In this document: positions 2,635-55,055 of the stretch, in pieces | Layout of the letters: each line of letters begins with the position of its first letter | Position numbering within the stretch: the stretch's first letter is position 1 | Virus record (IMG/VR): IMGVR_UViG_3300009194_000007 | Location: 37,611-101,610 of that record | Strand: one strand, 5' to 3' | Length of the DNA stretch: 64,000 nt | Source: a virus | Notes under the pieces: model-generated | Database searches by the model: none | What the model saw: the letters and a program-made list of their open reading frames with translations, nothing else | Told to the model about the DNA's origin: nothing | Made by a program: the position numbers and the translations under genes

Positions 2635-4287
2635 TTAGAAAATGATCCCCCAGTCGGAATCATCCAAGGCATCACCCAGCGACACCTCGTTGAGTGTGTC
2701 GTAAACAAAATCCTCATAGTTGGACAATTGCTTCATCACCAACATGAGTAGTACCATGGCCATCACCCGATCATCCTTGGCTCCTGCTTCCGCCTTGAAG
2801 GTTGCACCATGTTTAGTGAACATCCTGAGTTCATTGAGTAGCTTGGCACTACGCAGGGTGAGTTTTCCTTCCTCAACCAAATCTTTCAATTGGGTACATC
2901 CTTCCAACTTCTTTTTGTTGGTGGTATATAAACCCATCTTTCCAGTCGGGATACCGTGATCATTCACGTCATTGATCATCACCGCTTGGTTTAGAATGGG
3001 ATCATCACTGTTTTCGATCAGACGAAGAATGCCATTCCCCAATCCATTGTTCTCGACCGTGTAATAGACTTCTCTTGCGCCTTCATTGAACAGCAGATGC
3101 ATGATGCGCAGGATGGTCTTGAAATAGTTGGTCTGGTTAATCGTGTTATTGGCGAACTCGGCTACCTGTTCAAAGGTATGCACATCGATGAACTGGATCG
3201 CATGGTTATCCTTCCCGACTCCTTCAGACACATCACACGCGAACGCAATGGTTCGGCCTTGAAAGGAATCCACATAGATTTCCATGTCCCCGTACTGGCG
3301 AATCGGATCAAGGGGCTTGATGGACTCGATCACTTGGGAGTTGATCAGTGAACTGTTATCGGAGAGCCATGCCCCTTCAAATTCCTGACGGTATTTGTTG
3401 ATGCCCAGCTTGCGAATCATCATTTCTCGCCATTCTTCGGTGCGACCGGGGATTTTTGAATGGTCTACTTGGTGATACTTGAAACCATTCATGCCCTCCA
3501 TGGCACCAAACGACAATTCCGCGTATTTCCCAGTGGATGAGTTAGGGGTTGAGATGATGACGACCTTAGCCGAACTCTCTTCCCCCGCCGCTTCCAAGGA
3601 CGGCATGAACCCCGTGTAAAATTCCTCAGCCACTTGGGGTTTGACGAACGCAAATTCGTCAATGATCGCCATGCCAGTGATGGTTCGTCCGCGAAAGGTT
3701 TGTTCGGATGTTACCTGAACGAAAATAGAAGACCCGTTGGTGAACTTGACTTCCCCCTTGTTGTACACGGTACAGGGAGGCTTCAGGAAATCTTCGAGGG
3801 ATTCATAGGAATATTTGATTCGATCCATGAAATCCTTGCAGTTGACGGACTTGTAGGAGGTGATGCCTACGGTCTTGTCATCTTCGAACACCGCCATGTG
3901 AAGAGCGTATAACCCCATTACCGTGGTATTGTGAGACAGAACACCATCGCAGTAATACAAGTTATCGCCAGACACCGATAGATCGTACATATTTTCACGA
4001 ACACCGGTTGCTTCAACTTTAACGACACGGGACGGGCCATCAATCGTATTGATGATGACCCCGACAGAATCCTTGGCGTATACCTCTTGGAAATCTTCGG
4101 TGATGAGAATGTGAGTGTCGGCACACTCAAGGGTCAATCCATTTTCCAATTCAACCCTATGGAGTTCATAGGGAACGGTTTTATTCGATGAATTGACATC
4201 TCTCCAACCATCGTGGGAAAGCACTTCCCACGATGACGTTTCCATTACCTCTTCAAACTTACGTGTTGTATTTTCGGACGGCTTCAT
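2635..4287 (-). CDS. terL: Terminase large subunit, C-terminal half fused to C-fragment of a split intein
   Basis: Residues 1-120 are the C-part of an intein ending in VLSHN; residue 121 onward is terminase, beginning TTVMGLYALHM, which completes the Walker A motif started by the 83-residue extein at 5,472-5,720. Walker B is MAIIDEF (D210, E211) and motif III is IISTPN. The RNase-H-fold nuclease carries FACDVSEG (D352), VENNGLG (E412) and AKDDR (about D505), as in T4 gp17. Spliced TerL would be 513 aa (83+430), an ATP-driven packaging motor that docks on the portal. ATG 4287 is chosen because GAGGT lies 5 bases upstream; TTG 4293 is an alternative. The start overlaps the end of the nested endonuclease gene. 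Confidence 0.92.
   Translation of the reverse strand: MKPSENTTRKFEEVMETSSWEVLSHDGWRDVNSSNKTVPYELHRVELENGLTLECADTHILITEDFQEVYAKDSVGVIINTIDGPSRVVKVEATGVRENMYDLSVSGDNLYYCDGVLSHNTTVMGLYALHMAVFEDDKTVGITSYKSVNCKDFMDRIKYSYESLEDFLKPPCTVYNKGEVKFTNGSSIFVQVTSEQTFRGRTITGMAIIDEFAFVKPQVAEEFYTGFMPSLEAAGEESSAKVVIISTPNSSTGKYAELSFGAMEGMNGFKYHQVDHSKIPGRTEEWREMMIRKLGINKYRQEFEGAWLSDNSSLINSQVIESIKPLDPIRQYGDMEIYVDSFQGRTIAFACDVSEGVGKDNHAIQFIDVHTFEQVAEFANNTINQTNYFKTILRIMHLLFNEGAREVYYTVENNGLGNGILRLIENSDDPILNQAVMINDVNDHGIPTGKMGLYTTNKKKLEGCTQLKDLVEEGKLTLRSAKLLNELRMFTKHGATFKAEAGAKDDRVMAMVLLMLVMKQLSNYEDFVYDTLNEVSLGDALDDSDWGIIF
3928..4287 (-). other. Split-intein C-fragment (TerL)
   Basis: 120 residues with intein blocks: a block-B-like segment LTLECADTHILIT with its His near residue 59, then block F ENMYDLSVSGDNLYYCDG and block G GVLSHN, followed by Thr as the +1 extein residue. 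No endonuclease domain is present inside. The break lies before block B, so nearly the whole splicing domain is on this fragment. That is the atypical split known from phage terminase inteins such as AceL-TerL. Confidence 0.88.
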
Positions 4288-5416
4288 TGACAACCTCTAG
4301 TAGTTCGTCTTTGTGTTCTATTTCTACACATTCGGTCCATCCATCGAATTTCTTATCTTCTGATTCGATCAGAATGGATAGTTGATTTCCGAGTATGTAT
4401 TTCTTGATCTCACATTCCCTGTTAAAATTCGTAAACCGGTCTGCATGATAGACTTTGATTACGTCTTTGATCGTAACAGAAGGAAATCGTTGTGACAGAT
4501 ACTTGGAAGTCACACCAATCTTGATAAAGGATTTATCATAACCGAGCGGCTGATATTCAATCACATACAGCTTGGTATCGATCTGATTGAACGGATCATC
4601 GGGGTCCATCAATTGGGTTTTTGGTTCGCTGTGCTTCCAGAAGCCTTTCTTGGCATTAATTTCGATCTTCTTTTCCTCGGGCAGTGCTTCGAGTGACGCA
4701 AGCCATTTCTCTTGGCGCTCGTTCCAGCGACGAATGCCCTCTTCCTCGCCATACTTAGCAATTAGCTTTTCACGATTGAACGTGTTTTGACGATCATAGT
4801 AAAGGCGCTGACCCTCTTCCTCACCGTAGCGTTCGGTCCAATAAGAAAGACGAGCGGTAACGCTGTTGTTGGCGTCTCGTGAAGCCACCGCTTTCTTCTT
4901 GGTTTCTTCCGATATATCGCCAGCGACGAATTTCTTGCTGAAAGGAGAAAATTTCCCTCCATGCTGGTAGCCCGGATTGTTTTCTCCTTTGACCCGTGAC
5001 GCTTTCTTGTTCAATTTTTCCTTGGCATGTTCCTCGCCGTAGAGCAGCGTGTAAAACTCCATGTTCTCGGTCTTTTTAGGGTATTGCTGGCAAAGCAATA
5101 CCTGTTGCCAGTAATCCGTCACTTCCTTGTTGTACTTGACGATCTTTGCAAGGTAGCTTTGCATCAGCTTGATCTTGTTGTTTCTATTCTCATTTGACAT
5201 CGCTTTACCAAACATGTCACTGACCTCATCGGTGGTGAGATTGGCAAGGCGATTGAAAACGGTGACGAACTGATCAACGTCACCGATTTCTTCAACCGAA
5301 AGATCGACACCCATCCGTCTCGGGAATTTGGCTACCTTTGTAAGCATCTCATCGATTGTGAAGGTTTTGATTTTCTTCTTGTACCGCTTCGTGGAATTGC
5401 TCTGCCGTGAGTTCAT
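4259..5416 (-). CDS. Free-standing GIY-YIG-like homing endonuclease nested between terL halves
   Basis: 385 aa in its own frame, with AGGAG 7 bases before ATG 5416. It overlaps the N-half gene by 68 bases and the C-half gene by 29. A GIY-YIG-like core is seen at about residues 282-340: LYVIEY, then FIKIGVTSKYLSQRF, then a Glu in NRECEIKKYI, resembling the T5orf172/MUG113 branch. Upstream are NUMOD-like segments (GENNPGYQHGG, SEETKKKAVAS) and three YGEE-type modules near residues 126, 197 and 222 of the kind seen in phage homing nucleases. Its position between the halves of a split intein suggests it drives inheritance of the split terminase locus. Class assignment is by motif. Confidence 0.78.
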   Translation of the reverse strand: MNSRQSNSTKRYKKKIKTFTIDEMLTKVAKFPRRMGVDLSVEEIGDVDQFVTVFNRLANLTTDEVSDMFGKAMSNENRNNKIKLMQSYLAKIVKYNKEVTDYWQQVLLCQQYPKKTENMEFYTLLYGEEHAKEKLNKKASRVKGENNPGYQHGGKFSPFSKKFVAGDISEETKKKAVASRDANNSVTARLSYWTERYGEEEGQRLYYDRQNTFNREKLIAKYGEEEGIRRWNERQEKWLASLEALPEEKKIEINAKKGFWKHSEPKTQLMDPDDPFNQIDTKLYVIEYQPLGYDKSFIKIGVTSKYLSQRFPSVTIKDVIKVYHADRFTNFNRECEIKKYILGNQLSILIESEDKKFDGWTECVEIEHKDELLEVVNEAVRKYNT

Positions 5417-5720
5417 AGATTTCTCCTGTGTGTTTGTTTCTCACGGTGTATTTAGTCATTTTGCCCGAGCACTTTCCACACTGTCTTGGCGCGTTTGAAA
5501 TCAAATACCTTTCATTCTGAATGTCATCAAGCAATTCCTCTTGATACTCACGAGGATCAAACAATTGTTTTCCACGAGGACCAACCACATAACAGTAATT
5601 GGTAAAGAAATACATCGGATCATCAGCACATTTCAGCCATTCATCGACTTCTTCCGATGTAAGGGGACGATCCTGCCCCGGCTTCTTGACAACGCTGTGA
5701 TCTACATTATATTCTGACAT
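5349..5720 (-). CDS. terL: Terminase large subunit, N-terminal half fused to N-fragment of a split intein
   Basis: Residues 1-83 are the terminase N-terminus: the adenine-binding Q-motif region (PREYQEELL, about 56-64) and the first part of Walker A, APRQCGK. Residue 84 is Cys, the first residue of a 40-residue intein N-fragment (CSGKMTKYTV, then TGEIYELTAEQF), after which the frame stops. The matching C-part is at 3928-4287. In T4 gp17 the equivalent motif is SRQLGKTT, so splicing rebuilds a Lys-Thr junction exactly in the ATP-binding loop. A late-promoter-like motif lies 31 bases upstream. Both halves keep intact splice-site residues, which argues against a decayed gene. Confidence 0.9.
   Translation of the reverse strand: MSEYNVDHSVVKKPGQDRPLTSEEVDEWLKCADDPMYFFTNYCYVVGPRGKQLFDPREYQEELLDDIQNERYLISNAPRQCGKCSGKMTKYTVRNKHTGEIYELTAEQFHEAVQEENQNLHNR
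5352..5471 (-). other. Split-intein N-fragment (TerL)
   Basis: 40 residues beginning with the nucleophilic Cys and carrying a block-A-like CSGKMTKYTVRNKHTG followed by EIYEL and a short helix. It begins immediately after the Walker A Lys and ends at a stop codon. The ribosome site and start of the endonuclease gene are embedded in this coding segment. Confidence 0.85.
5686..5713 (+). promoter_or_regulatory. Sigma70-type promoter antisense to terL start
   Basis: TTGACA and TATATT separated by 16 bases on the plus strand, inside the first codons of the terL N-half on the opposite strand. It would serve the short plus-strand gene that follows and could interfere with the facing terminase transcript. 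Confidence 0.5.
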
Positions 5721-5751
5721 GGCCTGTATACCTCTTTGTCTGGTTACAAAC

Positions 5752-5762
5752 CTATTTACTGA
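5752..5762 (-). promoter_or_regulatory. T4-type late promoter motif
   Basis: Minus strand CAGTAAATAGG, 31 bases ahead of ATG 5720 of the terL N-half. Confidence 0.5.
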
Positions 5763-5840
5763 AAAGAAAGGAATTGTGATGAAAATGATAGAAACGGATC
5801 AATTGAAATCCGATCTGAAGAAACTGGTTTCAGTGAAGGC

Positions 5841-6167
5841 ATGGCTGAAGGTCATTCACTACCTCCGGTGGGTACCGTATGTGAAGCAGTGTGTTCGGAT
5901 GGTGAGTGGCATAAAGTGACCATCGTACATACCGATGAATCCATCCACAAGAAAGGGATTTCCATTTATCCGGGGATTGCGGTCTTCAAATGCCCCATCA
6001 GTTCGGATTTGAAGTATTATTGGCAGACACCGAATCGTTTCCGTCCGATTCGTTCAGAAAAAGAAAAGACCATTGATGCCATGATGGAACTGTGGAACAA
6101 ATCACCCCATGAATGCCCTGAAGAAAAACTAAAGGAGATTTACGAAACCTTCATCGAATCACAATAA
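5841..6167 (+). CDS. Hypothetical protein, possibly the 3' part of a frameshifted gene
   Basis: 108 aa, the only plus-strand gene in the left 31 kb. ATG 5841 has no convincing ribosome site. Sixty-two bases upstream, ATG 5779 has a good AAAGGA, but that frame ends at 5919 after 46 residues. The upstream frame (MKMIETDQLKSDLKKL) looks like a natural N-terminus, while this frame carries the rest (LPPVGTVCEAV, GEWHKVTIVH, FRPIRSEKEKTIDAM). An indel between 5,800 and 5,840, or a sequencing error, would explain this. The LPPVGTVCE and FRPIR motifs recur in small phage proteins of unknown function. A sigma70-type promoter at 5,686-5,713 and a terminator at 6,173 frame the unit. Confidence 0.6.
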   Translation: MAEGHSLPPVGTVCEAVCSDGEWHKVTIVHTDESIHKKGISIYPGIAVFKCPISSDLKYYWQTPNRFRPIRSEKEKTIDAMMELWNKSPHECPEEKLKEIYETFIESQ

Positions 6168-33295: not shown

Positions 33296-33323
33296 AAAGC
33301 CCCGCCAAGCGGGGCTTTCTTTT
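33296..33323. terminator. Bidirectional terminator after sheath gene
   Basis: Stem AAAGCCCCGC / GCGGGGCTTT with loop CAA, followed by CTTTT on the plus strand and by AAAAAG-derived T-run on the minus strand. It sits between the converging sheath and endonuclease genes. Confidence 0.85.
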
Positions 33324-35130
33324 AGAATGTCATTTCGTATCTGATCGATCCACTGTCATAGATTCGGTAGAATCCATTCATTCTCATATTCTCACTCTCT
33401 GTCAACGATTCATCGAACACGTCTAATCGGTCTTTCAGCTTATGCTTCATGAAGAGATGTCGGTTGAGACGCTTATCTGAGCCTTGTTTGACATACCATA
33501 GGTTGGGAGGTGTCACATGCTGGCGCGTGAACCCGGTCTTCTCGTACAGATTCCCGTTGCTGTAGTCTAGGCTGGCAAAAGTGAATACAGAGGAAGGGTC
33601 ATAGGTCTTCTTGAAATAACTCATCAGTTTTCCAAGTCCACCGATGACGTGAACGGACGTGGCATAGCGCGACAGATCAAAGACCCCGTTGCCGGTGTCT
33701 TTGAATGTAACACATGCAACGATGTTACCCCCATGACGCAGTGCGATGTATCGTGTTCCGTTAACATGACCTTGAATATGATTGTATTCATAGAAGGCTT
33801 TTGCTTCCTTGGTGTCGATTTCCTCAACAACACACTTACGGGCGAATACACGTTCATCCCCACCAACCAGTTTGGATTTGATCTTCTTGATGATGATCTC
33901 CCGCTTGACTGGATCATTCCAATCATCTTCCCACACATGAACCATGGAAAGGCCCGATTCATGGGCCGCAAGGGATTTGCGTTGGTGATAGTCCCTAGCC
34001 TTGTAAATCTCACTGTGCCAGTAGACACCATTGAACTCGACGCACAGATTCGCTTCTGGAATGAAAATATCGACCTCCCTTCTGTATTCACGAAGGGGTT
34101 CCCGAGTGTTACGAACGATGTCAAATCCCCAACCGGAAATCAAATCAGCCAGATCGTCCTCGGATTTTGAGGTCGTTTGTTTGATGGGTATACCAAGATT
34201 GGCTGCTGACCGTTGAACCGCCGAGAACGAAACCCCCAACTCATCGGCAACATTCGATAGGAACGTATGTTCCTCAATCATTTGCTCCATGCTTTCCTTG
34301 TCACTCAGGATAGCGATAGCCCTTTCCGATATATGACGCTGAGACGGCGATTCCACACCATACTTGGCGAGGTTACTTTGTGTGATCTTCCACTTGATCT
34401 TCGGATCGCGCATCGGATGACCGCCCTCAAATCGTTCGAAAGATGATTTGATTTTGGCCTTTGTTTCCGGGGAAGCTACACGATAGGTGCCGTCAGACAG
34501 CTTCAAGGAGCGCTCTGCAACGTCCTCACACTGCATGGCGTTGTCCACACCATAGCGCTCCCTGACGATCTTCCTGACACGTTCTTTGCCTTCCTCGGAC
34601 CTCATGTAATCGTCAGCGCCATAACGCTCCATGCAGGTTTTTCGGTACTTCTCCTTGTACCAAGGAAGTTGGGATGGGTGAGTTATCGATGGATCATCAA
34701 TTCCTTTTGCTTTCAGATTGCGTTGTATGCTATCTGCGTAGCGTTTCTTCCCTTCCTCAGAACACAGGTATGATGGTCCGCCATAATTGTCCTTGAGCGT
34801 TTTATGCTTCTTCGCAATAGTCTGTTCACTCCTATTAGAACATTTCGATGAACAGAACTTTGCAAAGACCTTTTTGTACACACCATCGAAATCCTGAACT
34901 TGGTTCCACGACACCTCATTCTCACCACAATGAATACAGAGGGGGATGGCGGTGATGCCTTTCTCGATACAATGCAAGCGAAGTGCGAAAGGCGGTTTGC
35001 GCTTCATGTCATTGACAAATGAAGTTGCTTCCATTACCGCTGCTTTGAAGGCTTTGTGCTTGGCGTTCATGAGTTCCCTACCGTTCGGGTATCCGTGGTC
35101 CTCAAGGTATCGCTTCAGATCGTCGTACAT
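33322..35130 (-). CDS. Free-standing Vsr-like (EDxHD-type) homing endonuclease, between sheath and tube genes
   Basis: 602 aa on the strand opposite to its neighbours. Zinc-finger-like pairs CIHCG and CSSKC lie near residues 65-95. ERYG-type modules follow (CMERYGADDYMRSEEGKERV, RERYGVDNAM, LAKYGVESPSQ). Residues about 340-410 are a Vsr-like nuclease: REVDIFIPEANLCVEFNGVYWHSE, then YHQRKSLAAHESGLSMVHVWEDDW. The C-terminal 170 residues (ARKCVVEEI, YNHIQGHVNG, YATSVHVIGGLGKLMSYF, LYEKTGF) resemble an acyltransferase-like fold shared by the two other copies. Such genes spread by cutting intergenic DNA of related phages that lack them. Confidence 0.82.
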   Translation of the reverse strand: MYDDLKRYLEDHGYPNGRELMNAKHKAFKAAVMEATSFVNDMKRKPPFALRLHCIEKGITAIPLCIHCGENEVSWNQVQDFDGVYKKVFAKFCSSKCSNRSEQTIAKKHKTLKDNYGGPSYLCSEEGKKRYADSIQRNLKAKGIDDPSITHPSQLPWYKEKYRKTCMERYGADDYMRSEEGKERVRKIVRERYGVDNAMQCEDVAERSLKLSDGTYRVASPETKAKIKSSFERFEGGHPMRDPKIKWKITQSNLAKYGVESPSQRHISERAIAILSDKESMEQMIEEHTFLSNVADELGVSFSAVQRSAANLGIPIKQTTSKSEDDLADLISGWGFDIVRNTREPLREYRREVDIFIPEANLCVEFNGVYWHSEIYKARDYHQRKSLAAHESGLSMVHVWEDDWNDPVKREIIIKKIKSKLVGGDERVFARKCVVEEIDTKEAKAFYEYNHIQGHVNGTRYIALRHGGNIVACVTFKDTGNGVFDLSRYATSVHVIGGLGKLMSYFKKTYDPSSVFTFASLDYSNGNLYEKTGFTRQHVTPPNLWYVKQGSDKRLNRHLFMKHKLKDRLDVFDESLTESENMRMNGFYRIYDSGSIRYEMTF

Positions 35131-36978: not shown

Positions 36979-38006
36979 AGGAACTTTTGATTGGTGATCT
37001 GCACTGGGGCGAGAAGAACAACTCGCCCAAATTTCATGGGCAGGTCATGGACTTTTTGAAATGGGTGCGAGAACTGGCAGAGAGCCGCCACATCGAGCGC
37101 TGCATCCAACTGGGGGACTGGTACCACCATCGCAACAAACTCGACGTAGCGACCGTCAATGCCTCCATACAGGGGGCAAAGCTACTGGGTGACACCTTCG
37201 GCAAGGAAAATGTCTGGGTTCTCCTTGGCAACCACGACCTCTACTACCTGAATCGTCTTGACGTTCACAGCCTGAAGACGATTCAATCCTTCGTCACCGT
37301 CATCGATTCGCCAACCGAAACGCCGGATGGAACGGGCATCGTCATCCCATGGATCACCGATGGTGAGATGTGGGATCGTGTCGTGGATATGGGCGATGAG
37401 TATGATTACCTGTTCTCGCATCTGGAACTGAATGGTTTCCAAGTCAACGATCAGTACACCATGGAACACGGCTTCTCCCACCGTGAACTTCGTGGTTACA
37501 ATCGTGTTCTGACCGGGCATTACCATTCGCGCCAGACCAAGGACAACATCACCTACGTTGGTACCCCGTATCCCATCACCATGAACGAAGCCAACGAAGC
37601 CCATGGAGTCTACATTCTGGACACCGAGACTGGCGAATTGGAGTTTGTTGAGTACACCGGTATCCGGGTTGTATCGATCCCTTACACCGAAATAGATACC
37701 ATCGAGGACTATGATCCCGAGAACACTAGCATCCGGGTCGAGTTTCCTGATGATCTTGAAGATGAAACGGTTATCACTGATGTTCAGAATCTATTGAAGG
37801 AGAAGAACTTTCAGGAATCCAAGATCAAGTACACCGCCAAGAAGGTCAGGGAACTGCTAGAGGCTGATGTCAGCGAAGTGTCCGAGGTCCAGAACATCGA
37901 TGAAGTCGTTCTGAAGTTTCTTGACAGTAGTATCGAGGTAGATGGGGTGGATAAGTCCCTATTGAAAGAACTGTATCGTGAAGCTAAAGCGCAGGAGGAC
38001 GAATAA
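36975..38006 (+). CDS. Recombination nuclease subunit gp47/SbcD/Mre11-like
   Basis: 343 aa. Calcineurin-like phosphoesterase motifs are complete: IGDLHWG (D8, H10), QLGDWYHHR, LLGNHDLYY, then FSHLE and LTGHYHSRQ. These bind two metal ions for DNA-end cleavage. ATG overlaps the sigma gene by ATGA and the stop overlaps the next gene start, so sigma-47-46 form one coupled operon as in T4. Works as a complex with the gp46-like ATPase in recombination-dependent replication and end processing. Confidence 0.93.
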   Translation: MKELLIGDLHWGEKNNSPKFHGQVMDFLKWVRELAESRHIERCIQLGDWYHHRNKLDVATVNASIQGAKLLGDTFGKENVWVLLGNHDLYYLNRLDVHSLKTIQSFVTVIDSPTETPDGTGIVIPWITDGEMWDRVVDMGDEYDYLFSHLELNGFQVNDQYTMEHGFSHRELRGYNRVLTGHYHSRQTKDNITYVGTPYPITMNEANEAHGVYILDTETGELEFVEYTGIRVVSIPYTEIDTIEDYDPENTSIRVEFPDDLEDETVITDVQNLLKEKNFQESKIKYTAKKVRELLEADVSEVSEVQNIDEVVLKFLDSSIEVDGVDKSLLKELYREAKAQEDE

Positions 38007-41000
38007 TGAACATCGTCATTGAAACCGTAGCCATGTCCAACTTTATGTCCTTCGGCAAGAAACCGACCTCGGTGTTGATGGATGTTCAACAGAATTGTCT
38101 TATTGTCGGTGATAATCGTGACATCGGATCGCCGGGAGAGAGTCGCAACGGCGCAGGTAAGTGTCTGGGAAGAGATACGCCTATTTTGATGTATGACGGA
38201 ACCATAAAGATGGTTCAAGACATTAAGGTTGGTGATGTTTTGATGGGTCCAGATGGAACTAAACGTAATGTTCTGTCTGTAGCTTCTGGAAGAGAAGAAC
38301 TGTTTCGAGTGAAACAGAATTTAGGCGATGATTACATCGTAAACCGCTCACACATTCTCTCCTTGAAGGTAGGAACAACACGTCCAACGTATGGGCATTT
38401 CAAAGGGGACGTTATCAACATTCCTGTTGAAACATATCTTTCGTACCCCCGTCATGTACAGCGTGGTGTATGTGGATATGTTGCAGATTTGGTAAACCTC
38501 GATGACGGGCATGATGATTTGTTCGACCCTTGGCTGCTTGGTATTTGGCTTGCTGATGGTACTTCATCAAAATCGCAAATAACTATCAATAACGATGATG
38601 TTGAAATTTACGATGAAGTTGAAAGAATCGTTTCTAATTACGGATACAAAATCAGTTTATATCCGTCTGGTTACAGACCGGGATGTAAGATTGTCAACTA
38701 TTCAGGTGGATTCCTAACTAAACTTCGAGAACTCGGTGTTCTGAATAATAAACATATTCCAGAAGAGTATCTAAGGTCTTCTTATCAAAACCGGCTTGAT
38801 CTCCTTGCTGGGATTCTTGATGGTGATGGATATTACCCCGGAGATCGGCATTTATTCGATATCATTCTTAAAGATAATAAACTTGTCGATGATCTTGTTT
38901 TCTTAGCAAGAAGTGTCGGGTTGCGCGTATCGGTGAATGATAAGTTTTGTAAATGCCAGAATTTTGATGGTGATGTGTACAAACGAATCACGATAACTGG
39001 TGAAATAGAAAAGATTCCTAATCGACTTTCTAGGAAAAAGGCTTCAAAGAAGCCTGACACAGCGAAGCCGCGTAACCATGGCGTCACTGGAATCCAATTG
39101 GAATCTTTGGGAGAAGGTGACTATTATGGCTTTGAGATTGATGGAGATCGACTTTTCTGCCTTGGTGACTTTACTGTAACGCATAACACAACTATACAAC
39201 AGGCTGTTATGTTTGGACTGTATGGCAAAGGCATCGATGGAAAGATCAAGGCTGATGAGTTCATCAACCTCAAAAACGAGAAGAAATTGTTGGTTGAGGT
39301 GGTCTTTCGTGCCAATAACGTAAGGTATCGTGTGGTTCGCCGCCGTAAGCCGTCATCGCTGTCACTTCATCTCCTTGAAACTGAAGGTGAGGTTGATTTG
39401 ACACAGGACTCCATGGCGAACACCGATAAGACACTGGAAGAGATTCTGGGTGTGTCTTATGACGTGTTCATGGGAGTATTCTTCCTGAGTCCCCATCGTG
39501 AATCGTTCATGGCCATGAGTGGACCGAATCAGCGCAAGTTCATCGAGGATGTGCTTGATCTGGATACGCTTGTGAAGCGTTCAGAATCCCTAAAGAAGAT
39601 TGCAAAGGATCAGGTCAAGGTTGATCTGAAGCTGATTCAGAAGGACATTGAGAACGCCGAATCGACCAATACACTGGTCAATTCGACCATCGAGCGTCTT
39701 CAAGGCAATGCATCGAGGTTTGATAGGGATATCAAGAAGGAGCAGGAGGAATGTCTGGAAACCCTAGACCTTGCCTCTGGACTTGACTTCGATGAAGCCA
39801 TGAATAGGATTGCTTCGATTCCAGACGCACGGGATATCGATGATCTCAATGCTAAAAAGGATTCTATTGAAACTCGTATCAAGACCATTGACGGTGAGGT
39901 AGCAACAAAGACCAAGATTGCGGACCAACTTGTTGGTATTACTCGCAAGGATGACGGATTTTCTGATTCTAAGAAATCGCGTCTGACGGAATTGGAAGAT
40001 GAACTTGATCGGTACCATGACTGTACTTACTACAAAAATCAGATCGCTCGTCGTGAAGAAGCCTCTGCTAAACGGAAGCAACTTGATCGTGTAGTGAGTC
40101 TGATTGAAAAGTCTGATTCTGAACTGGACAGGCTTGAAGATTCTGGTTCTAAACTAATCGATGAAATCGAGAAGCTGGAAGGTGGCGTGTGCCCTACCTG
40201 TGGCACTGAGGACCATGGTCCTAAGCTGAAAAAGATGATCGAAGAGCGTAGGACCAAGGCGGAAGAAATCACACAGCGCATCGATGAACTCGATTCCGAA
40301 TTGACTGTTCTCAATGAGAAACGTGCCCGTCTCGAAGATGAGATCGAGAATCTGGACGCGCATATTGATGATGGTGACCCGGAAAAGGAACTCCGTGCCC
40401 GAGAGAACCTTCTTGAACGCATTGATCGTGTGTCCGGTGAAGACAATCCGTACCATGAGCAAGTTATCGAAATGACCCAAACCTATGGGACATTGGAGTC
40501 TATCACCGTCAATATCGCCGAACTCGATACAGAACGGAAAACACTCAAGTCTGAACTCGAATCAGTGACCAAGGCTATTGGTGAGTTTCATACCCGGCGT
40601 AAGCAACTCGTAAGCGAGTGTGAGGACAAGTACGGCACCAGTGATATCAATGTCCTCAAGGACTTCATGGGTGATGTGACACGCGCTAAAGACCGCCTTG
40701 ATGAACTCAAGGGGAAAGTGAACCCGTGGCTGGAAGAGATCGAATCAGCAAGGGAAGGGTATGTTGATGTTTCAGAATTGAACAGTGCCAAAACCGATCT
40801 CGAAAAGCGTCTGAAACATATCGACTATCTCGTTAAGCTACTGAATGATTCCAAGTCGTTCATTCGTCGTAACATCGTTGATCAGTATGTGCCGTTCCTG
40901 AATAAGAAGATCAACGAATATGCAAGCCGTTTGGGTCTGGGTCATGTGGTTGAAATTAACTCTGATATGACAGTTGACCTGTTCTACATGCAGAAAGCAG

Positions 41001-41290
41001 TTTCCTATCACCTCATGAGTCAGGGTGAGCGGATGCGTCTCAACACGGCGACGACCATGGCATTCCGCGACCTGATGGGTCTTCTCGGGCGGAATTGCAA
41101 TCTTCTCATGGTTGACGAGATGTTCGATAGTGCGTTGGACACCAGTGGGTGCCACGACATGATCAAGTTCATCGGGGGTCGCGCCGATAACCTGCTGATG
41201 ATCAGCCACCGTGAAGAGTTTGAAGGGTTCATGGATTCAAAGATGATCGTAACGAAGGAGAATGGTTTCAGCAGGATCGACATCGTTTAA
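38006..41290 (+). CDS. Recombination nuclease ATPase gp46/SbcC/Rad50-like, interrupted by an intein
   Basis: 1094 aa before splicing, 752 after. Extein parts: N-terminal ATPase with Walker A split as NGAGK (residues 48-52) and TTIQQAV after the intein; QEE/KK-rich coiled-coil arms; a zinc hook CPTC near residue 728; ABC signature SQGERMRLN; and Walker B LLMVDEMFDS. Residues 53-394 are the intein. Together with the gp47-like nuclease it resects DNA ends. The extein is longer than T4 gp46, mainly in the coiled coil. Confidence 0.92.
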   Translation: MNIVIETVAMSNFMSFGKKPTSVLMDVQQNCLIVGDNRDIGSPGESRNGAGKCLGRDTPILMYDGTIKMVQDIKVGDVLMGPDGTKRNVLSVASGREELFRVKQNLGDDYIVNRSHILSLKVGTTRPTYGHFKGDVINIPVETYLSYPRHVQRGVCGYVADLVNLDDGHDDLFDPWLLGIWLADGTSSKSQITINNDDVEIYDEVERIVSNYGYKISLYPSGYRPGCKIVNYSGGFLTKLRELGVLNNKHIPEEYLRSSYQNRLDLLAGILDGDGYYPGDRHLFDIILKDNKLVDDLVFLARSVGLRVSVNDKFCKCQNFDGDVYKRITITGEIEKIPNRLSRKKASKKPDTAKPRNHGVTGIQLESLGEGDYYGFEIDGDRLFCLGDFTVTHNTTIQQAVMFGLYGKGIDGKIKADEFINLKNEKKLLVEVVFRANNVRYRVVRRRKPSSLSLHLLETEGEVDLTQDSMANTDKTLEEILGVSYDVFMGVFFLSPHRESFMAMSGPNQRKFIEDVLDLDTLVKRSESLKKIAKDQVKVDLKLIQKDIENAESTNTLVNSTIERLQGNASRFDRDIKKEQEECLETLDLASGLDFDEAMNRIASIPDARDIDDLNAKKDSIETRIKTIDGEVATKTKIADQLVGITRKDDGFSDSKKSRLTELEDELDRYHDCTYYKNQIARREEASAKRKQLDRVVSLIEKSDSELDRLEDSGSKLIDEIEKLEGGVCPTCGTEDHGPKLKKMIEERRTKAEEITQRIDELDSELTVLNEKRARLEDEIENLDAHIDDGDPEKELRARENLLERIDRVSGEDNPYHEQVIEMTQTYGTLESITVNIAELDTERKTLKSELESVTKAIGEFHTRRKQLVSECEDKYGTSDINVLKDFMGDVTRAKDRLDELKGKVNPWLEEIESAREGYVDVSELNSAKTDLEKRLKHIDYLVKLLNDSKSFIRRNIVDQYVPFLNKKINEYASRLGLGHVVEINSDMTVDLFYMQKAVSYHLMSQGERMRLNTATTMAFRDLMGLLGRNCNLLMVDEMFDSALDTSGCHDMIKFIGGRADNLLMISHREEFEGFMDSKMIVTKENGFSRIDIV
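38162..39187 (+). other. Intein with LAGLIDADG homing endonuclease in gp46 Walker A
   Basis: 342 residues from Cys (CLGRDTPILM, block A) to FTVTHN (block G), +1 residue Thr. Block B is NRSHILSL. Two LAGLIDADG motifs are visible: LLGIWLADG (about precursor residues 177-185) and LLAGILDGDG (about 265-274), so the endonuclease is probably intact. The local composition is more AT-rich than the flanking extein, consistent with transfer. Confidence 0.93.
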
Positions 41291-51155: not shown

Positions 51156-52928
51156 ATGATGACAGAAACAGAATTGAAAGCGTATTTGAAAGAACTCAAA
51201 GGTTACACCCACCTATCCAGAAACGAGAAATACAAACCTATCTATGATCTCATCATCGAAATGACTTCTATGCTTCCTTCCCATACGAAGGTTGGGATGC
51301 GAGTCAAGATCATTTTGGGTCAGATGGATACCCAATACTGCCCGGTCTGCGGGACCGTGTGTGACGTGGAAAAGGAAGGCAATCGCTGGCGCAAGACATG
51401 CGGCGATGCATCGTGTGATAAAGCCAGTAGGAAGAACGCCCTACGCAAGACCTCTATGGAACGCTACGGTGTTGAGAATCCTGCCCATTCTCAGCGTGTC
51501 AAGGACAAGCGCAAACAAACGAATCTCGAACGCTATGGGTCAGGTAACTATGCACAGACTGAAGAATACAAACAGAAAACGAAAGGAAGAAAACACACCG
51601 AAAACACAAAACAAAAGATGCGAGAGTCGTGGCAGGTAGCCATTGCCGAGCGAGGGGAAGAGATAGTCGAGAAGCGCCTAAACACGGTCAAGGAGCGTTA
51701 TGGGGTCGAGAACGTAGGTCAGGTGGACACGATTAAGCAACGTATCTCCGAAAGCCACAAGAAGCACTTTGGAGGACATTTTCTATCGTCATCTGCTGCG
51801 AAAGAAGCCCGCGTGGCCGCGTTCGGTGCCGCCAACTACTTCAGCACGGATGAGTTTAAGGAGCGTGTGAAGGCCAACAACATGGAGCGGTATGGGGTTG
51901 AGCATCACTTTCAGAACCCAACCTCGATGAAATATCTCGATGATCATGATTGGCTGATGGAGCAGTACCAAACACGCACCATCGTTTCTATTGCTGAAGA
52001 GGTAGGTGTTTATCCGTCTACTGTGTGGAACAAACTGGTTGCTCTGGGGGTAGAGGAAACGATTCATGGTGCATCTAAGGTGTCTCAAGGGGAGCGTGAC
52101 CTACATGCATTCCTCACCGATGAGTTAGGTGTTGAGTTTGAATCATCTAATCGAACTGTGTTGAGTGGTATGGAACTGGATATCTATATCCCAGAACGCA
52201 ATGTGGCTATCGAATACAATGGCATCTATTGGCATTGTGAGAAGTACCGGGACCGTAAGTATCACCAAGAGAAGTCACTTTCTTGTATGGGTCACGGAAT
52301 CCAATTGGTTCACGTATGGGAAGACGATTGGACGAATCCCGTGAAACGTGAGATAGTGAAAAATAAGCTGCGCAGTAAGCTGGGGTTCCCTGTCAGTCAG
52401 AAGGTGTATGCCCGCAAGACATCCATCGTGATCCCGTCTGCCTCTCAGGTGAGATCATTTTACAATTCAAATCACCTTCAGGGGTTCGTTCGTGCATCTA
52501 AACATATCGGACTCGAATATGAAGGTGAACTGGTTGCCTGTGCTTCATTCCATCCCATGCGTGAAGAAGGTGTTTGGGATTTGAACCGCTTTGCGACTTC
52601 AATGACGGTGGTGGGAGGATTCAGTAAGCTATTGTCACACTTCAAGAAAACTACAGAGTGGAACAAGATCGTGACGTTCGCCCACCTCGATTACTCACAC
52701 GGTGGGGTGTACGAGAAGACAGGATTTGAGAAGATCAAGATCACTGAACCGGGAATGTGGTATACCAAGGGAAGTGTACGTCTCCAACGTCAACGGTTCA
52801 TGAAAAGCAAACTGAAAGAGGTGTTGGAGAATTTCGATCCTGATATATCCGAACATGCCAACATGCTCAACCATGGCTTCTACAAACTATATGATGCAGG
52901 TTCTATTCGGTACGAGATGACTCCGTAA
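51156..52928 (+). CDS. Free-standing Vsr-like (EDxHD-type) homing endonuclease, first of tandem pair
   Basis: 590 aa; GGGAGG precedes two in-frame ATGs (51156, 51159). Same architecture as the sheath/tube copy: Cys pairs CPVCG and CGDASC near residues 65-90, ERYG modules (MERYGVENPAHSQRV, LERYGSGNYAQT, KERYGVENVGQV, MERYGVEHHFQ), a Vsr-like nuclease (ELDIYIPERNVAIEYNGIYW, then YHQEKSLSCMGHGIQLVHVW) and an acyltransferase-like C-terminus (SNHLQGFVRA, GGFSKLLSHF, YEKTGFEKI). Located right after the major capsid terminator, a typical invasion site. Confidence 0.83.
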   Translation: MMTETELKAYLKELKGYTHLSRNEKYKPIYDLIIEMTSMLPSHTKVGMRVKIILGQMDTQYCPVCGTVCDVEKEGNRWRKTCGDASCDKASRKNALRKTSMERYGVENPAHSQRVKDKRKQTNLERYGSGNYAQTEEYKQKTKGRKHTENTKQKMRESWQVAIAERGEEIVEKRLNTVKERYGVENVGQVDTIKQRISESHKKHFGGHFLSSSAAKEARVAAFGAANYFSTDEFKERVKANNMERYGVEHHFQNPTSMKYLDDHDWLMEQYQTRTIVSIAEEVGVYPSTVWNKLVALGVEETIHGASKVSQGERDLHAFLTDELGVEFESSNRTVLSGMELDIYIPERNVAIEYNGIYWHCEKYRDRKYHQEKSLSCMGHGIQLVHVWEDDWTNPVKREIVKNKLRSKLGFPVSQKVYARKTSIVIPSASQVRSFYNSNHLQGFVRASKHIGLEYEGELVACASFHPMREEGVWDLNRFATSMTVVGGFSKLLSHFKKTTEWNKIVTFAHLDYSHGGVYEKTGFEKIKITEPGMWYTKGSVRLQRQRFMKSKLKEVLENFDPDISEHANMLNHGFYKLYDAGSIRYEMTP

Positions 52929-52985: not shown

Positions 52986-55055
52986 ATGAGCAAAAGAAAG
53001 ATGAGTGATAGCGAGGAACATGCTAACTGGTCAACCGAACAGCTTAGGGAGTTCCTTAAAGGGGTGTCTAATGTTGGGTACATCTCGAATTATTTCAAAC
53101 ACATGAAAGGGAACATAATCAGAAAAACGAGTTTTCTTGAGGACCACTATCCCCAAAACAAGATTACGTTTTCCGTCCGTGTGAAGATGATTGTGGATGG
53201 CATTCTTGACGCTAACCAACTTCCGACATGTCGTGTTTGTGGCGAGCGCAAGGCAAAGTTTGCTCGTGGAACCCTAGACTTCGAAGAAACATGTTATGAA
53301 CGCAAATGCGTTAAACAGGTGAAGGTCGAACGCACACGGAAGGCATGGGACGAACGCTACGGTGGTCACCCTCTCCGAAATGAAGCGTTCTTAGAGAAGC
53401 GAAAGAGAACCAATGTCGAACGCTATGGTGGGTCTAGTCCTGCTGCTTCTGAAGAGGTGAAAGCCAAGATCAAAGCCACGAATGTCGAACGCTATGGGGT
53501 TGAGTACGTTACCCAGAATGATGAGATACGAAAGCGTCAACAGGCTACACTGGATGCCAAATACGGCAAGGACAGGAAGCCGATTGTAGAGAACACGAAG
53601 AGAACAATGCGTTCTCGGTATGGCGTGGATTGTCCCTACCACATTCCGGGCGTTAAAGAGAAGACCACACAAACCAATATCGAGCGGTATGGTGGTCATC
53701 CATCGGCTTCTCCCGATGTAAAGGCCAAGTCGAAGTTGACAAACCGTGAGAAGTACGGGGTGGATCATCCCATGAAAAGTCCTCCTATTCGGGACCGGGT
53801 TAGGCAATCTATTTTGGACACGATTGCCGAACGCGGCGATGAAATTGTATCACTGAGGCGTATTACATCGACAGAACGGTATGGGGTTGACAATCCCGCC
53901 AAATCCGAGACGGTTAAGTATCGGATAAAAGAAGCATTTCGGCATAGGTATGGGGTTGATAATCCTAGCCAAAGTGGTGAGGTGAAACAGAAAAAGGTCC
54001 AGACTTCGTTGGATCGTTACGGGCATCCTCATTACATGACATCGACACTTAGCCCGGAAGCAATTGATGTTCTCAACAATGCCGATAAGTTGCAAGAATA
54101 CTATTCGACGTATGGGGGTCTTCGTGCTTCCGATATGATAGGAGTGGATGACAAAACCTTCTACGCCTACATGAGAAAGCATGGCATCGCCGTCGATGAA
54201 ACGGTTGGAACCTCTTTCGGGGAACGAGAACTGATTGAGTATATACGATCCCTTGGGATCGAAGTGGTGACCAAGTACAGGGATGGGATGGACGGAAAAG
54301 AGATTGATATCTATCTTCCAAACCATCAGATCGGAATAGAATACAACGGCGTCTACTGGCACTGTGAGTTGTATCGTGATGCCCAGTATCATTTGGAGAA
54401 AACCAAAACAGCGGCTTCTCAAGGGATACGTCTCATTCAGCTTTTCGAGGACGAGTGGCATGATCGTAAAGAAGTCGTTAAAGAGAAACTGAGGTTCATG
54501 CTGGGGATTCGAACCGAAAGAGTATATGCTAGGAAGTGTCATGTTCAACAGGTGAAACATTCGGATTTGAAGAATTTCTATGATAACAACCATATTCAGG
54601 GTCATGGTCCCGGTTCTACTGCACTGACATTGACCCACAATGATACAATCGTTGCCGCGATGTCCTTTCGTAAGACCGGTAAGGCTGGTGAAGTAGAATT
54701 GATTCGTTACGCAACGTCTAAGTCGGTAGTGGGAGGATTCAGCAAGCTACTGAAACATTCTATTCGTGTTCTGAAGGATCAAGGTATCAGCCGCATCGTT
54801 TCATTCGCTGACAAGCGGTGGAGTGTAGGCGACGTGTACCACAATTGTGGCTTCGTTCACGAGTACGATACCGCACCCGATTATCAATATGTGGTAGGAC
54901 AGCGCCGAGAACGCAAACAGAAGTTCCGTAGAAATAGGTTGCCTTCGATCCTGAAGAACTTCGATCCTGCCAAGTCTGAGATTCGGAACATGAACGATCA
55001 TGGGTACTACCGTATTTTCGATTGCGGGCTGATGAAATTCTCCATGGCCATTTGA
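52986..55055 (+). CDS. Free-standing Vsr-like (EDxHD-type) homing endonuclease, second of tandem pair
   Basis: 689 aa, TAGGAG 6 bases upstream. Same family as the two other copies but with more ERYG-type modules (nine or more, including VERYGGSSPAASEEV, SRYGVDCPYHIPGV, REKYGVDHPMKS, HRYGVDNPSQSGEV). Cys pairs CRVCG and CYERKC lie near residues 79-105. The nuclease has KEIDIYLPNHQIGIEYNGVY, WHCELYRDAQYH and IRLIQLFEDEW. The C-terminal domain carries YDNNHIQGHGPG and GGFSKLLKH. The repeat number differs among the three copies, suggesting expansion and contraction of DNA-reading modules. Confidence 0.83.
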   Translation: MSKRKMSDSEEHANWSTEQLREFLKGVSNVGYISNYFKHMKGNIIRKTSFLEDHYPQNKITFSVRVKMIVDGILDANQLPTCRVCGERKAKFARGTLDFEETCYERKCVKQVKVERTRKAWDERYGGHPLRNEAFLEKRKRTNVERYGGSSPAASEEVKAKIKATNVERYGVEYVTQNDEIRKRQQATLDAKYGKDRKPIVENTKRTMRSRYGVDCPYHIPGVKEKTTQTNIERYGGHPSASPDVKAKSKLTNREKYGVDHPMKSPPIRDRVRQSILDTIAERGDEIVSLRRITSTERYGVDNPAKSETVKYRIKEAFRHRYGVDNPSQSGEVKQKKVQTSLDRYGHPHYMTSTLSPEAIDVLNNADKLQEYYSTYGGLRASDMIGVDDKTFYAYMRKHGIAVDETVGTSFGERELIEYIRSLGIEVVTKYRDGMDGKEIDIYLPNHQIGIEYNGVYWHCELYRDAQYHLEKTKTAASQGIRLIQLFEDEWHDRKEVVKEKLRFMLGIRTERVYARKCHVQQVKHSDLKNFYDNNHIQGHGPGSTALTLTHNDTIVAAMSFRKTGKAGEVELIRYATSKSVVGGFSKLLKHSIRVLKDQGISRIVSFADKRWSVGDVYHNCGFVHEYDTAPDYQYVVGQRRERKQKFRRNRLPSILKNFDPAKSEIRNMNDHGYYRIFDCGLMKFSMAI

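What the first reader, a model, noticed from the sequence alone, without database searches (positions are those of the whole stretch)
2635..5720. Terminase gene split by an atypical split intein with a GIY-YIG-like endonuclease gene between the halves
Seen directly: terL N-half ends in APRQCGK followed by a 40-aa Cys-initiated intein fragment and a stop; a separate gene encodes a 120-aa intein fragment ending in VLSHN followed by TTVMG and the rest of TerL. The break is before block B, so the N-fragment is very short. A complete 385-aa endonuclease gene with its own ribosome site overlaps both halves. Known precedent: fractured genes with split inteins and free-standing endonucleases, and the AceL-TerL class of short N-fragment inteins. 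This would make packaging depend on trans-splicing of the motor's ATP-binding loop, and the three overlapping frames (N-half, nuclease, C-half) form one compact selfish unit. The combination of an early-split TerL intein with a GIY-YIG/T5orf172-like nuclease may be new.
Basis: partly seen in the sequence, partly recalled or inferred. Interest (0 to 1): 0.9.

Follow-up and report, generated by a model that had tools for sequence, protein, structure and literature searches.

The report
Terminase gene fractured by split intein
This phage makes its DNA-packaging motor in two pieces that a split intein should join in the middle of the ATP-binding loop, with a homing-endonuclease gene between the two halves; the arrangement belongs to a known class ('fractured genes') and is widespread in phage terminases, but this one carries a less common nuclease type.

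Summary
On the minus strand, terL is broken into an N-half (83 aa TerL plus a 40-aa Cys1 IntN) and a C-half (120-aa IntC ending in SHN, then TTVMG and 430 aa of TerL). The break lies exactly between Lys and Thr of Walker A (GK|T). A 385-aa nuclease gene with its own ribosome site sits between them and overlaps both (68 and 29 nt). Both intein fragments match full-length TerL inteins at the same site (at least 301 phage records). IntC matches solved split inteins (VidaL, gp41-1, Cat).

In IMG/VR, 22 of 63 distinct relatives carry a nuclease gene between the same two TerL halves. Most encode an EDxHD (Vsr-like) nuclease on the same presumed DNA-binding scaffold; four, including the window, have a GIY-YIG-like module instead, and the tree indicates at least two swaps. 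A fractured gene with a GIY-YIG nuclease is already published (AceL NrdHF), as are early-split TerL inteins (AceL-TerL, GOS-TerL), which have Cys+1 where this one has Thr+1.

Verdict: a genuine fractured terL, a new variant of a known kind. The most novel by-product is L079, where an intact TerL-intein frame runs through the nuclease gene out of frame. Splicing and homing remain untested.

The parts
5472..5720 (-). TerL N-extein, residues 1-83, ending APRQCGK (first half of Walker A)
   Evidence: phrog_5989 1.2e-20, residues 19-83; alignment A2
5352..5471 (-). IntN fragment, 40 aa, Cys1: CSGKMTKYTVRNKHTGEIYELTAEQFHEAVQEENQNLHNR; stop codon 5349-5351
   Evidence: aligns with IntN of Vme32, SCTP-2, BX-1, Kuja and others at the same junction; junction table
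5422..5427 (-). Shine-Dalgarno AGGAGA of the nuclease gene, inside the IntN coding sequence
   Evidence: sequence; similar GGAGATTTnT sites inside IntN codons in many relatives
4259..5416 (-). Free-standing homing-endonuclease gene, 385 aa; overlaps the N-half by 68 nt and the C-half by 29 nt
   Evidence: ORF and SD; relatives L009-L013, found with this protein, lie between TerL halves or directly after an N-half
4646..5077 (-). Nuclease residues 114-257: scaffold shared with EDxHD-type relatives (NPGYQHGGKxSPFS...RQxTF...WxxRQxKW), presumed DNA-binding
   Evidence: 43.5% identity to L101, 4e-29; 49% to L009, 9e-28; Cr30 42%, 3e-19
4280..4579 (-). Nuclease residues 280-379: GIY-YIG/T5orf172-like catalytic module (LYVIEY...KIGVTSKYLSQRF...)
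   Evidence: phrog_681 1.8e-6; L030 phrog_681 2e-12; L050 T5orf172 9.9e-7; alignment A8
3928..4287 (-). IntC fragment, 120 aa, blocks B (ECADTHIL), F (ENMYDLSV) and G (DGVLSHN)
   Evidence: Pfam Intein_splicing 0.002 and TIGR01443 15.8 bits, over its cut-off 15.6; the IntC family profile matches VidaL 1e-13, gp41-1 3e-13, CatC 3e-10
4294..4297 (-). Shine-Dalgarno GAGG of the C-half (start ATG 4287)
   Evidence: sequence
2638..3927 (-). TerL C-extein, 430 aa, starting TTVMG (second half of Walker A); ATPase and RNase H-like nuclease; stop 2635-2637
   Evidence: Terminase_6N 1.9e-8 and Terminase_6C 8.9e-6 for the C-half protein; catalytic columns invariant in A6

Best explanation
This is a 'fractured' terL. 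Two separately translated TerL halves each carry one piece of an early-split class-1 intein (IntN 40 aa, IntC 120 aa) inserted between Lys83 and the Walker A Thr. The fragments associate, Cys1 and Thr+1 act as nucleophiles and Asn120 cyclises, leaving a scarless 513-aa TerL with an intact ATP-binding loop. The gene between the halves encodes a free-standing homing endonuclease: a scaffold shared with EDxHD-type relatives, carrying a GIY-YIG/T5orf172-like catalytic module. By inference it cuts intein-less terL at the conserved P-loop codons in co-infecting phages, and repair copies the whole cassette. Shown here: anatomy, intein homology, site conservation, nuclease family and recurrence of the arrangement. 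Inferred: splicing, cleavage, homing and dependence of packaging on splicing.
For: Both fragments match whole inteins at the same insertion site in at least 301 phage records, and solved split inteins. Cys1, block-B His, His-Asn and Thr+1 are kept. The TerL catalytic Asp/Glu columns are invariant in an alignment that includes the window. There is no second TerL in the record. The same N-half/nuclease/C-half order recurs in 22 of 63 distinct loci. Nuclease relatives found with the nuclease protein alone lie at the same position in L009, L011, L012 and L013, and directly after an N-half in L010. Ribosome sites and overlaps. No intron family in Rfam matches.
Against: Block A is divergent (CSGKMT against the usual CVxGDT). 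The closest relative in the tree, L025, has the split intein without a nuclease gene, so a nuclease is not needed for the split form. The window's nuclease domain gives no Pfam hit, its fold prediction is poor, and its catalytic Glu cannot be placed with certainty. No experiment shows splicing or cutting.
Confidence: 0.87

Rival explanations
1. The split intein works, but the nuclease gene is a passive or decayed passenger that no longer homes.
For: Split TerLs without any nuclease gene are common (11 of 63 distinct loci, including L025, near the window in the tree). Truncated nucleases occur at the site (L044, L072). The window's GIY-YIG domain is divergent.
Against: The ORF is full length with a good ribosome site and a conserved position, and homology to L030 runs through the catalytic module.
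Confidence: 0.2
2. The halves are joined at the RNA level (intron) or by programmed frameshifting rather than by protein splicing.
For: Interrupted phage genes are often introns. In the relative L079 one open frame runs through the whole interruption.
Against: No Rfam intron at either threshold. Precise intein motifs lie at both junctions. In the window the N-half, nuclease and C-half occupy three different frames with separate ribosome sites.
Confidence: 0.03
3. TerL is a decaying or mis-assembled gene in this contig.
For: The record is a linear environmental contig without close relatives in the phage collection.
Against: The same arrangement recurs in many independent contigs; all reading frames are intact and the TerL catalytic columns are conserved.
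Confidence: 0.03
4. The two halves work as a non-covalent two-subunit TerL and splicing is not needed.
For: A heg-split nrdA that functions as two peptides is mentioned in PMC10448857.
Against: The break is inside Walker A itself, and each half would keep an intein fragment at the catalytic site; splice-junction residues are conserved.
Confidence: 0.04

Closest known systems
Fractured genes (Dassa et al. 2009, NAR 37:2560; full text not held, content from memory and citations)
   Same: A conserved phage enzyme broken by a split intein with a free-standing nuclease gene between the halves
   Different: Here TerL is broken inside Walker A, the split is before block B, and the nuclease is GIY-YIG-like rather than Vsr-like
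AceL NrdHF split intein (PMC7891396)
   Different: Host is NrdHF; class 3 intein; canonical split (98+48 aa)
AceL-TerL / GOS-TerL / Cat-TerL atypical split inteins (PMC11766414)
   Same: TerL host; very short IntN (25-37 aa) and long IntC (104-115 aa), as here (40/120)
   Different: They have Cys+1; here Thr+1 in Walker A, hence another insertion site
Contiguous TerL P-loop inteins of Ackermannviridae (e.g. Salmonella phages Marshall PMC3853055 and Mooltan; Vibrio phages Kuja, VPALA)
   Same: Same site RQxGK|C...HN|T and the same intein family
   Different: One continuous gene with no nuclease
EDxHD (Vsr-like) homing endonucleases, I-Bth0305I type
   Same: Relatives with this catalytic domain occupy the same gap and share the scaffold; the L060 model matches 1cw0 and 3r3p (prob 1.0)
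   Different: The window's nuclease lacks this domain and has a GIY-YIG-like one instead
MIJ3 split PolB with HNH nuclease (PMC6892783)
   Same: Split intein gene pair with a nuclease gene between the halves
   Different: Other host gene and other nuclease family

Membership tests
Split intein (class 1) | Nucleophile at intein position 1 after a conserved extein junction | tested here: met
   GK|C in the window and nearly all relatives
Split intein (class 1) | Block B His, block F, C-terminal His-Asn, +1 Cys/Ser/Thr | tested here: met
   H59, D102, H119 and N120 invariant in A6; +1 Thr
Split intein (class 1) | The two fragments lie in separately translated genes | tested here: met
   Two ORFs with their own starts and ribosome sites
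Split intein (class 1) | Trans-splicing activity | not testable with these tools
   needs co-expression and mass spectrometry
Fractured gene | Conserved enzyme gene broken by a split intein | tested here: met
   TerL
Fractured gene | Free-standing endonuclease gene between the halves | tested here: met
   4259-5416(-)
AceL-TerL class | Short IntN, split before block B, in TerL | tested here: met
   40-aa IntN, block B in IntC
AceL-TerL class | Insertion site with Cys+1 | tested here: not met
   Thr+1 in Walker A; Cys+1 for AceL, GOS and Cat-TerL per PMC11766414
GIY-YIG (T5orf172/MUG113) nuclease | Profile match over the curated cut-off | tested here: not met
   Window domain: no Pfam hit; relative L050 passes T5orf172 with 29.6 bits
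GIY-YIG (T5orf172/MUG113) nuclease | Motif Y...KIGxT...R, and homology to accepted members | tested here: met
   Y, K, G, T and R invariant in A8; phrog_681 match
GIY-YIG (T5orf172/MUG113) nuclease | GIY-YIG fold and catalytic Glu | tested here: inconclusive
   pLDDT 60, no PDB match; Glu not placed with certainty
EDxHD homing endonuclease | Vsr-like catalytic domain | tested here: not met
   Matches to most EDxHD-type relatives stop at about residue 257; the rest is GIY-YIG-like

The most novel reading that the evidence does not exclude
The TerL P-loop cassette is one ancient mobile element that swaps its cutting module: a common scaffold with a common place in the intein carries EDxHD or, at least twice independently, GIY-YIG-type catalytic domains. 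It may have arisen by overprinting: the nuclease gene sat out of frame inside an intact intein ORF, as in L079, where both frames are open over 313 codons (0 of 20,000 synonymous resamplings leave the intein frame open), and stops or frameshifts later turned cis-inteins into split ones. That would be a concrete route from cis to split inteins.
Probability: 0.4. Interest if true: 0.78.

Novelty: new variant of a known kind. Interest (0 to 1): 0.52.

Why it matters
It puts an obligatory protein trans-splicing step inside the ATP-binding loop of a genome-packaging motor. It shows that one fractured terminase site with one nuclease scaffold is reused across very diverse phages with interchangeable cutting domains. 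The related loci form an evolutionary series at one site (empty site, cis-intein, cis-intein with an overprinted nuclease, split with nuclease, split without nuclease, halves far apart in the genome) that makes the origin of split inteins directly testable. They are also a large source of new short-IntN split inteins with Thr+1 for protein labelling.

Tried and rejected
Intron explanation: no Rfam match at gathering or at E<=1 beyond two chance sub-threshold hits.

AceL-TerL membership: rejected because of Thr+1.

Fold confirmation of the window's GIY-YIG domain: AlphaFold model too poor (pLDDT 60), no PDB match; phmmer of the domain against PDB gave nothing.

Single-protein IMG/VR scan with the TerL C-half found no close relative, so dN/dS of the halves was not attempted.

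Megablast of the first 24 kb of the window against phages found nothing, so host and taxonomy stay unknown.

A search for more L079-like overprinted loci found only L079 itself.

A single origin of the GIY-YIG version was tested and rejected on the shared scaffold (AU p = 0.001), with the caution that the tree has only 144 columns and few well-supported branches.
Full report
CHECK OF THE OBSERVATION. Reading the minus strand, the N-half gene (5720..5349) encodes 83 residues of TerL ending APRQCGK and a 40-residue Cys-initiated tail. The nuclease gene (5416..4259) encodes 385 aa and has AGGAGA 5 nt before its ATG. The C-half gene (ATG 4287, GAGG upstream, to 2635) encodes a 120-residue tail ending SHN followed by 430 residues of TerL beginning TTVMG. 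The genes overlap by 68 and 29 nt and use three different frames. The ligated product would have 513 aa. There is only one N-half and one C-half in the 101,610-bp record, and no intact TerL; the record is linear and may be incomplete.

WHAT THE HALVES ARE. The N-half matches TerL families (phrog_5989, 1.2e-20) and the C-half matches Terminase_6N, Terminase_6C, Intein_splicing and the TIGR01443 intein C-terminal region. tblastn finds the IntC part in 312 phage records, 301 of them with at least 80% coverage, mostly Ackermannviridae and relatives; in those fetched it is part of a contiguous TerL intein. The N-half including IntN also aligns with these. In the alignments the junctions are the same: RQxGK|C at the start, HN|T or HN|S at the end, i.e. 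exactly between the Walker A lysine and threonine; a few relatives such as CP20 and L037 use a site two or three residues upstream. A profile of the IntC family and its extein matches T4 gp17 and the solved inteins VidaL (1e-13), gp41-1 (3e-13) and CatC (3e-10). IntN has a deviant block A (CSGKMT), but the following TVRNKxTGEI segment is nearly identical to IntN of Vibrio phage vB_VmeM-32.

HOW COMMON THE ARRANGEMENT IS. A profile scan of IMG/VR gave 450 relatives, the best 80 of which were kept. Together with the phage records they form 63 distinct loci: 18 fractured with an EDxHD-type nuclease, 4 fractured with a GIY-YIG-like one, 14 contiguous, 11 split without a nuclease, 2 with a short remnant ORF, 12 of unknown state and 2 with distant halves. 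The class labels were given by position, length and inspection of the sequences printed. These are the loci most similar to the query, so the numbers are not unbiased frequencies. Independently, the nuclease protein alone retrieved five IMG/VR loci. In L009, L011, L012 and L013 the nuclease lies between a TerL N-half and C-half; in L010 it follows an N-half and no C-half was found before the contig ends. In most fractured relatives the nuclease start lies inside the IntN codons, with its ribosome site in the codons for I-G-D-F, and the nuclease stop overlaps the C-half start by exactly 25 nt. On a tree of TerL plus intein the fractured state needs 15 changes and contiguous/split needs 8, so gain, loss or movement has been frequent; the window groups with L025 (split, no nuclease) and L026 with support 97/97.

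THE NUCLEASE. Residues 114-257 of the window's nuclease are shared with the EDxHD-type nucleases of other loci (43.5% identity to L101, 4e-29; 49% to L009, 9e-28) and with the free-standing nuclease directly upstream of an intein-less terL in Caulobacter phage Cr30 (42%, 3e-19). The structure model of one such relative, L060, has a confident C-terminal domain that matches Vsr endonuclease 1cw0 and the I-Bth0305I catalytic domain 3r3p at probability 1.0, although the E-values are weak (0.05 and 0.13). The window's nuclease has a different C-terminal module that aligns instead with L030, L050 and L053. L050 passes the Pfam T5orf172 cut-off (29.6 bits), L030 is just below it, and the window and L030 both match phrog_681. 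The window's own module gives no Pfam hit and a poor model, so GIY-YIG is probable, not proven. On the shared scaffold the four GIY-YIG-type nucleases do not form one clade (AU p = 0.001), and L050 is sister to the EDxHD-type L060 (95/89), so the catalytic module was probably swapped at least twice; the tree is short and this needs more data.

MECHANISM. Shown: the anatomy, homology, junction conservation and recurrence. Inferred from established intein and homing-endonuclease biology: the two fragments associate, Cys1 and Thr+1 act as nucleophiles, Asn120 cyclises and TerL is ligated without a scar; the nuclease cuts intein-less terL near the P-loop codons and the cassette spreads by repair. 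Because the break is inside Walker A, TerL function should depend on splicing.

EVOLUTIONARY SERIES AT ONE SITE. The related loci show an empty site (Alishewanella phage Slickus01) and its near twin Slicko01 with an unrelated Ala1 intein at the same position; contiguous mini-inteins; split genes with or without a nuclease; and halves far apart in the genome. In SCTP-2 the halves lie about 172 kb apart on opposite strands, in vB_VmeM-32 about 79 kb apart on opposite strands, and in LR756501 and the L041 record about 13-14 kb apart. In L079 one contiguous 1,015-aa TerL-intein frame runs through a complete EDxHD-type nuclease gene in another frame. Over its 313 codons, 20,000 synonymous resamplings gave on average 32 stops in the intein frame (minimum 17) and 20,000 codon permutations 23 (minimum 12), none open, so both frames appear to be kept. 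L082 and L078 are contiguous inteins whose linker still holds out-of-frame remnants of a nuclease. This suggests, but does not prove, that the nuclease first entered the intein loop out of frame and that stops or frameshifts later split the gene.

COMPARISON WITH WHAT IS KNOWN. Fractured genes are a known class (Dassa et al. 2009, not held here; cited by PMC10448857, PMC6892783 and PMC12350094). A fractured nrdHF with a GIY-YIG-type nuclease is published (PMC7891396), a fractured polB with an HNH nuclease too (PMC6892783). Early-split TerL inteins are known (AceL-TerL 25/104, GOS-TerL 37/115, Cat-TerL 30/104, all with Cys+1; PMC11766414). TerL inteins in Salmonella phages are known (PMC3853055). 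The present case differs from AceL-TerL in its insertion site and from the usual fractured genes in its nuclease module. No held paper found here describes a fractured TerL with a GIY-YIG nuclease, but many intein papers are not held, so absence from the literature is not shown.

VERDICT. Real, well explained and widespread: a new variant of a known kind.

Noticed in passing
L079:4732-7776 (IMGVR_UViG_3300044729_002140): A contiguous TerL-intein ORF runs open through a complete EDxHD-type nuclease gene (5093-6034) in another frame; 0 of 20,000 synonymous resamplings leave the intein frame open.
   Followed up: partly
L082:380-700 and L078:3230-3420: Contiguous TerL inteins whose linker holds out-of-frame remnants of a deleted nuclease gene.
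   Followed up: partly
window 38006-41290 (+): SbcC-like protein carries a contiguous ~342-aa intein (about 38162-39187) with a LAGLIDADG-like domain, also at the P-loop (GAGK|C...HN|TT); it resembles the Slicko01 TerL intein (28%, 2e-23).
   Followed up: partly
window 33322-35130 (-), 51156-52928 (+), 52986-55055 (+): Three further large homing endonucleases of phrog_3339; the last two lie just downstream of the major head protein gene.
   Followed up: no
KU160494.1 79950-80291(-) and 1105(+); MF360958.1 429359-429727(-) and 256434(+): TerL intein halves far apart and on opposite strands in Vibrio phage vB_VmeM-32 (~79 kb) and Salicola phage SCTP-2 (~172 kb).
   Followed up: partly
L050:4631-9551; also L034, L045, L072: TerL broken into three or four separate genes by split inteins at up to three sites, with nuclease genes between pieces.
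   Followed up: partly
L022 and L002 (Alishewanella phages Slickus01 and Slicko01): Near-identical TerLs of two phages of the same host strain, one with an empty site, one with an Ala1 LAGLIDADG-type intein exactly at GK|T: a natural intein-minus/plus pair.
   Followed up: partly
L024:2040-5101 (Aeromonas phage AsFcp_1): TerL appears fractured at a different site (QEH|C...HN|CCRF), with a SegE-type GIY-YIG/NUMOD3 domain fused ahead of IntC; the record is unannotated and marked unverified.
   Followed up: partly
L005 about 2473-2943 (Delftia phage PhiW-14): Unannotated TerL N-half with IntN directly upstream of the annotated terL, which is really the C-half.
   Followed up: partly
L097:5302-5994, L019:5838-6653, LR756501 700535-700939: Short intein-less TerL ATPase paralogues lie near or elsewhere in genomes with split TerL.
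   Followed up: no
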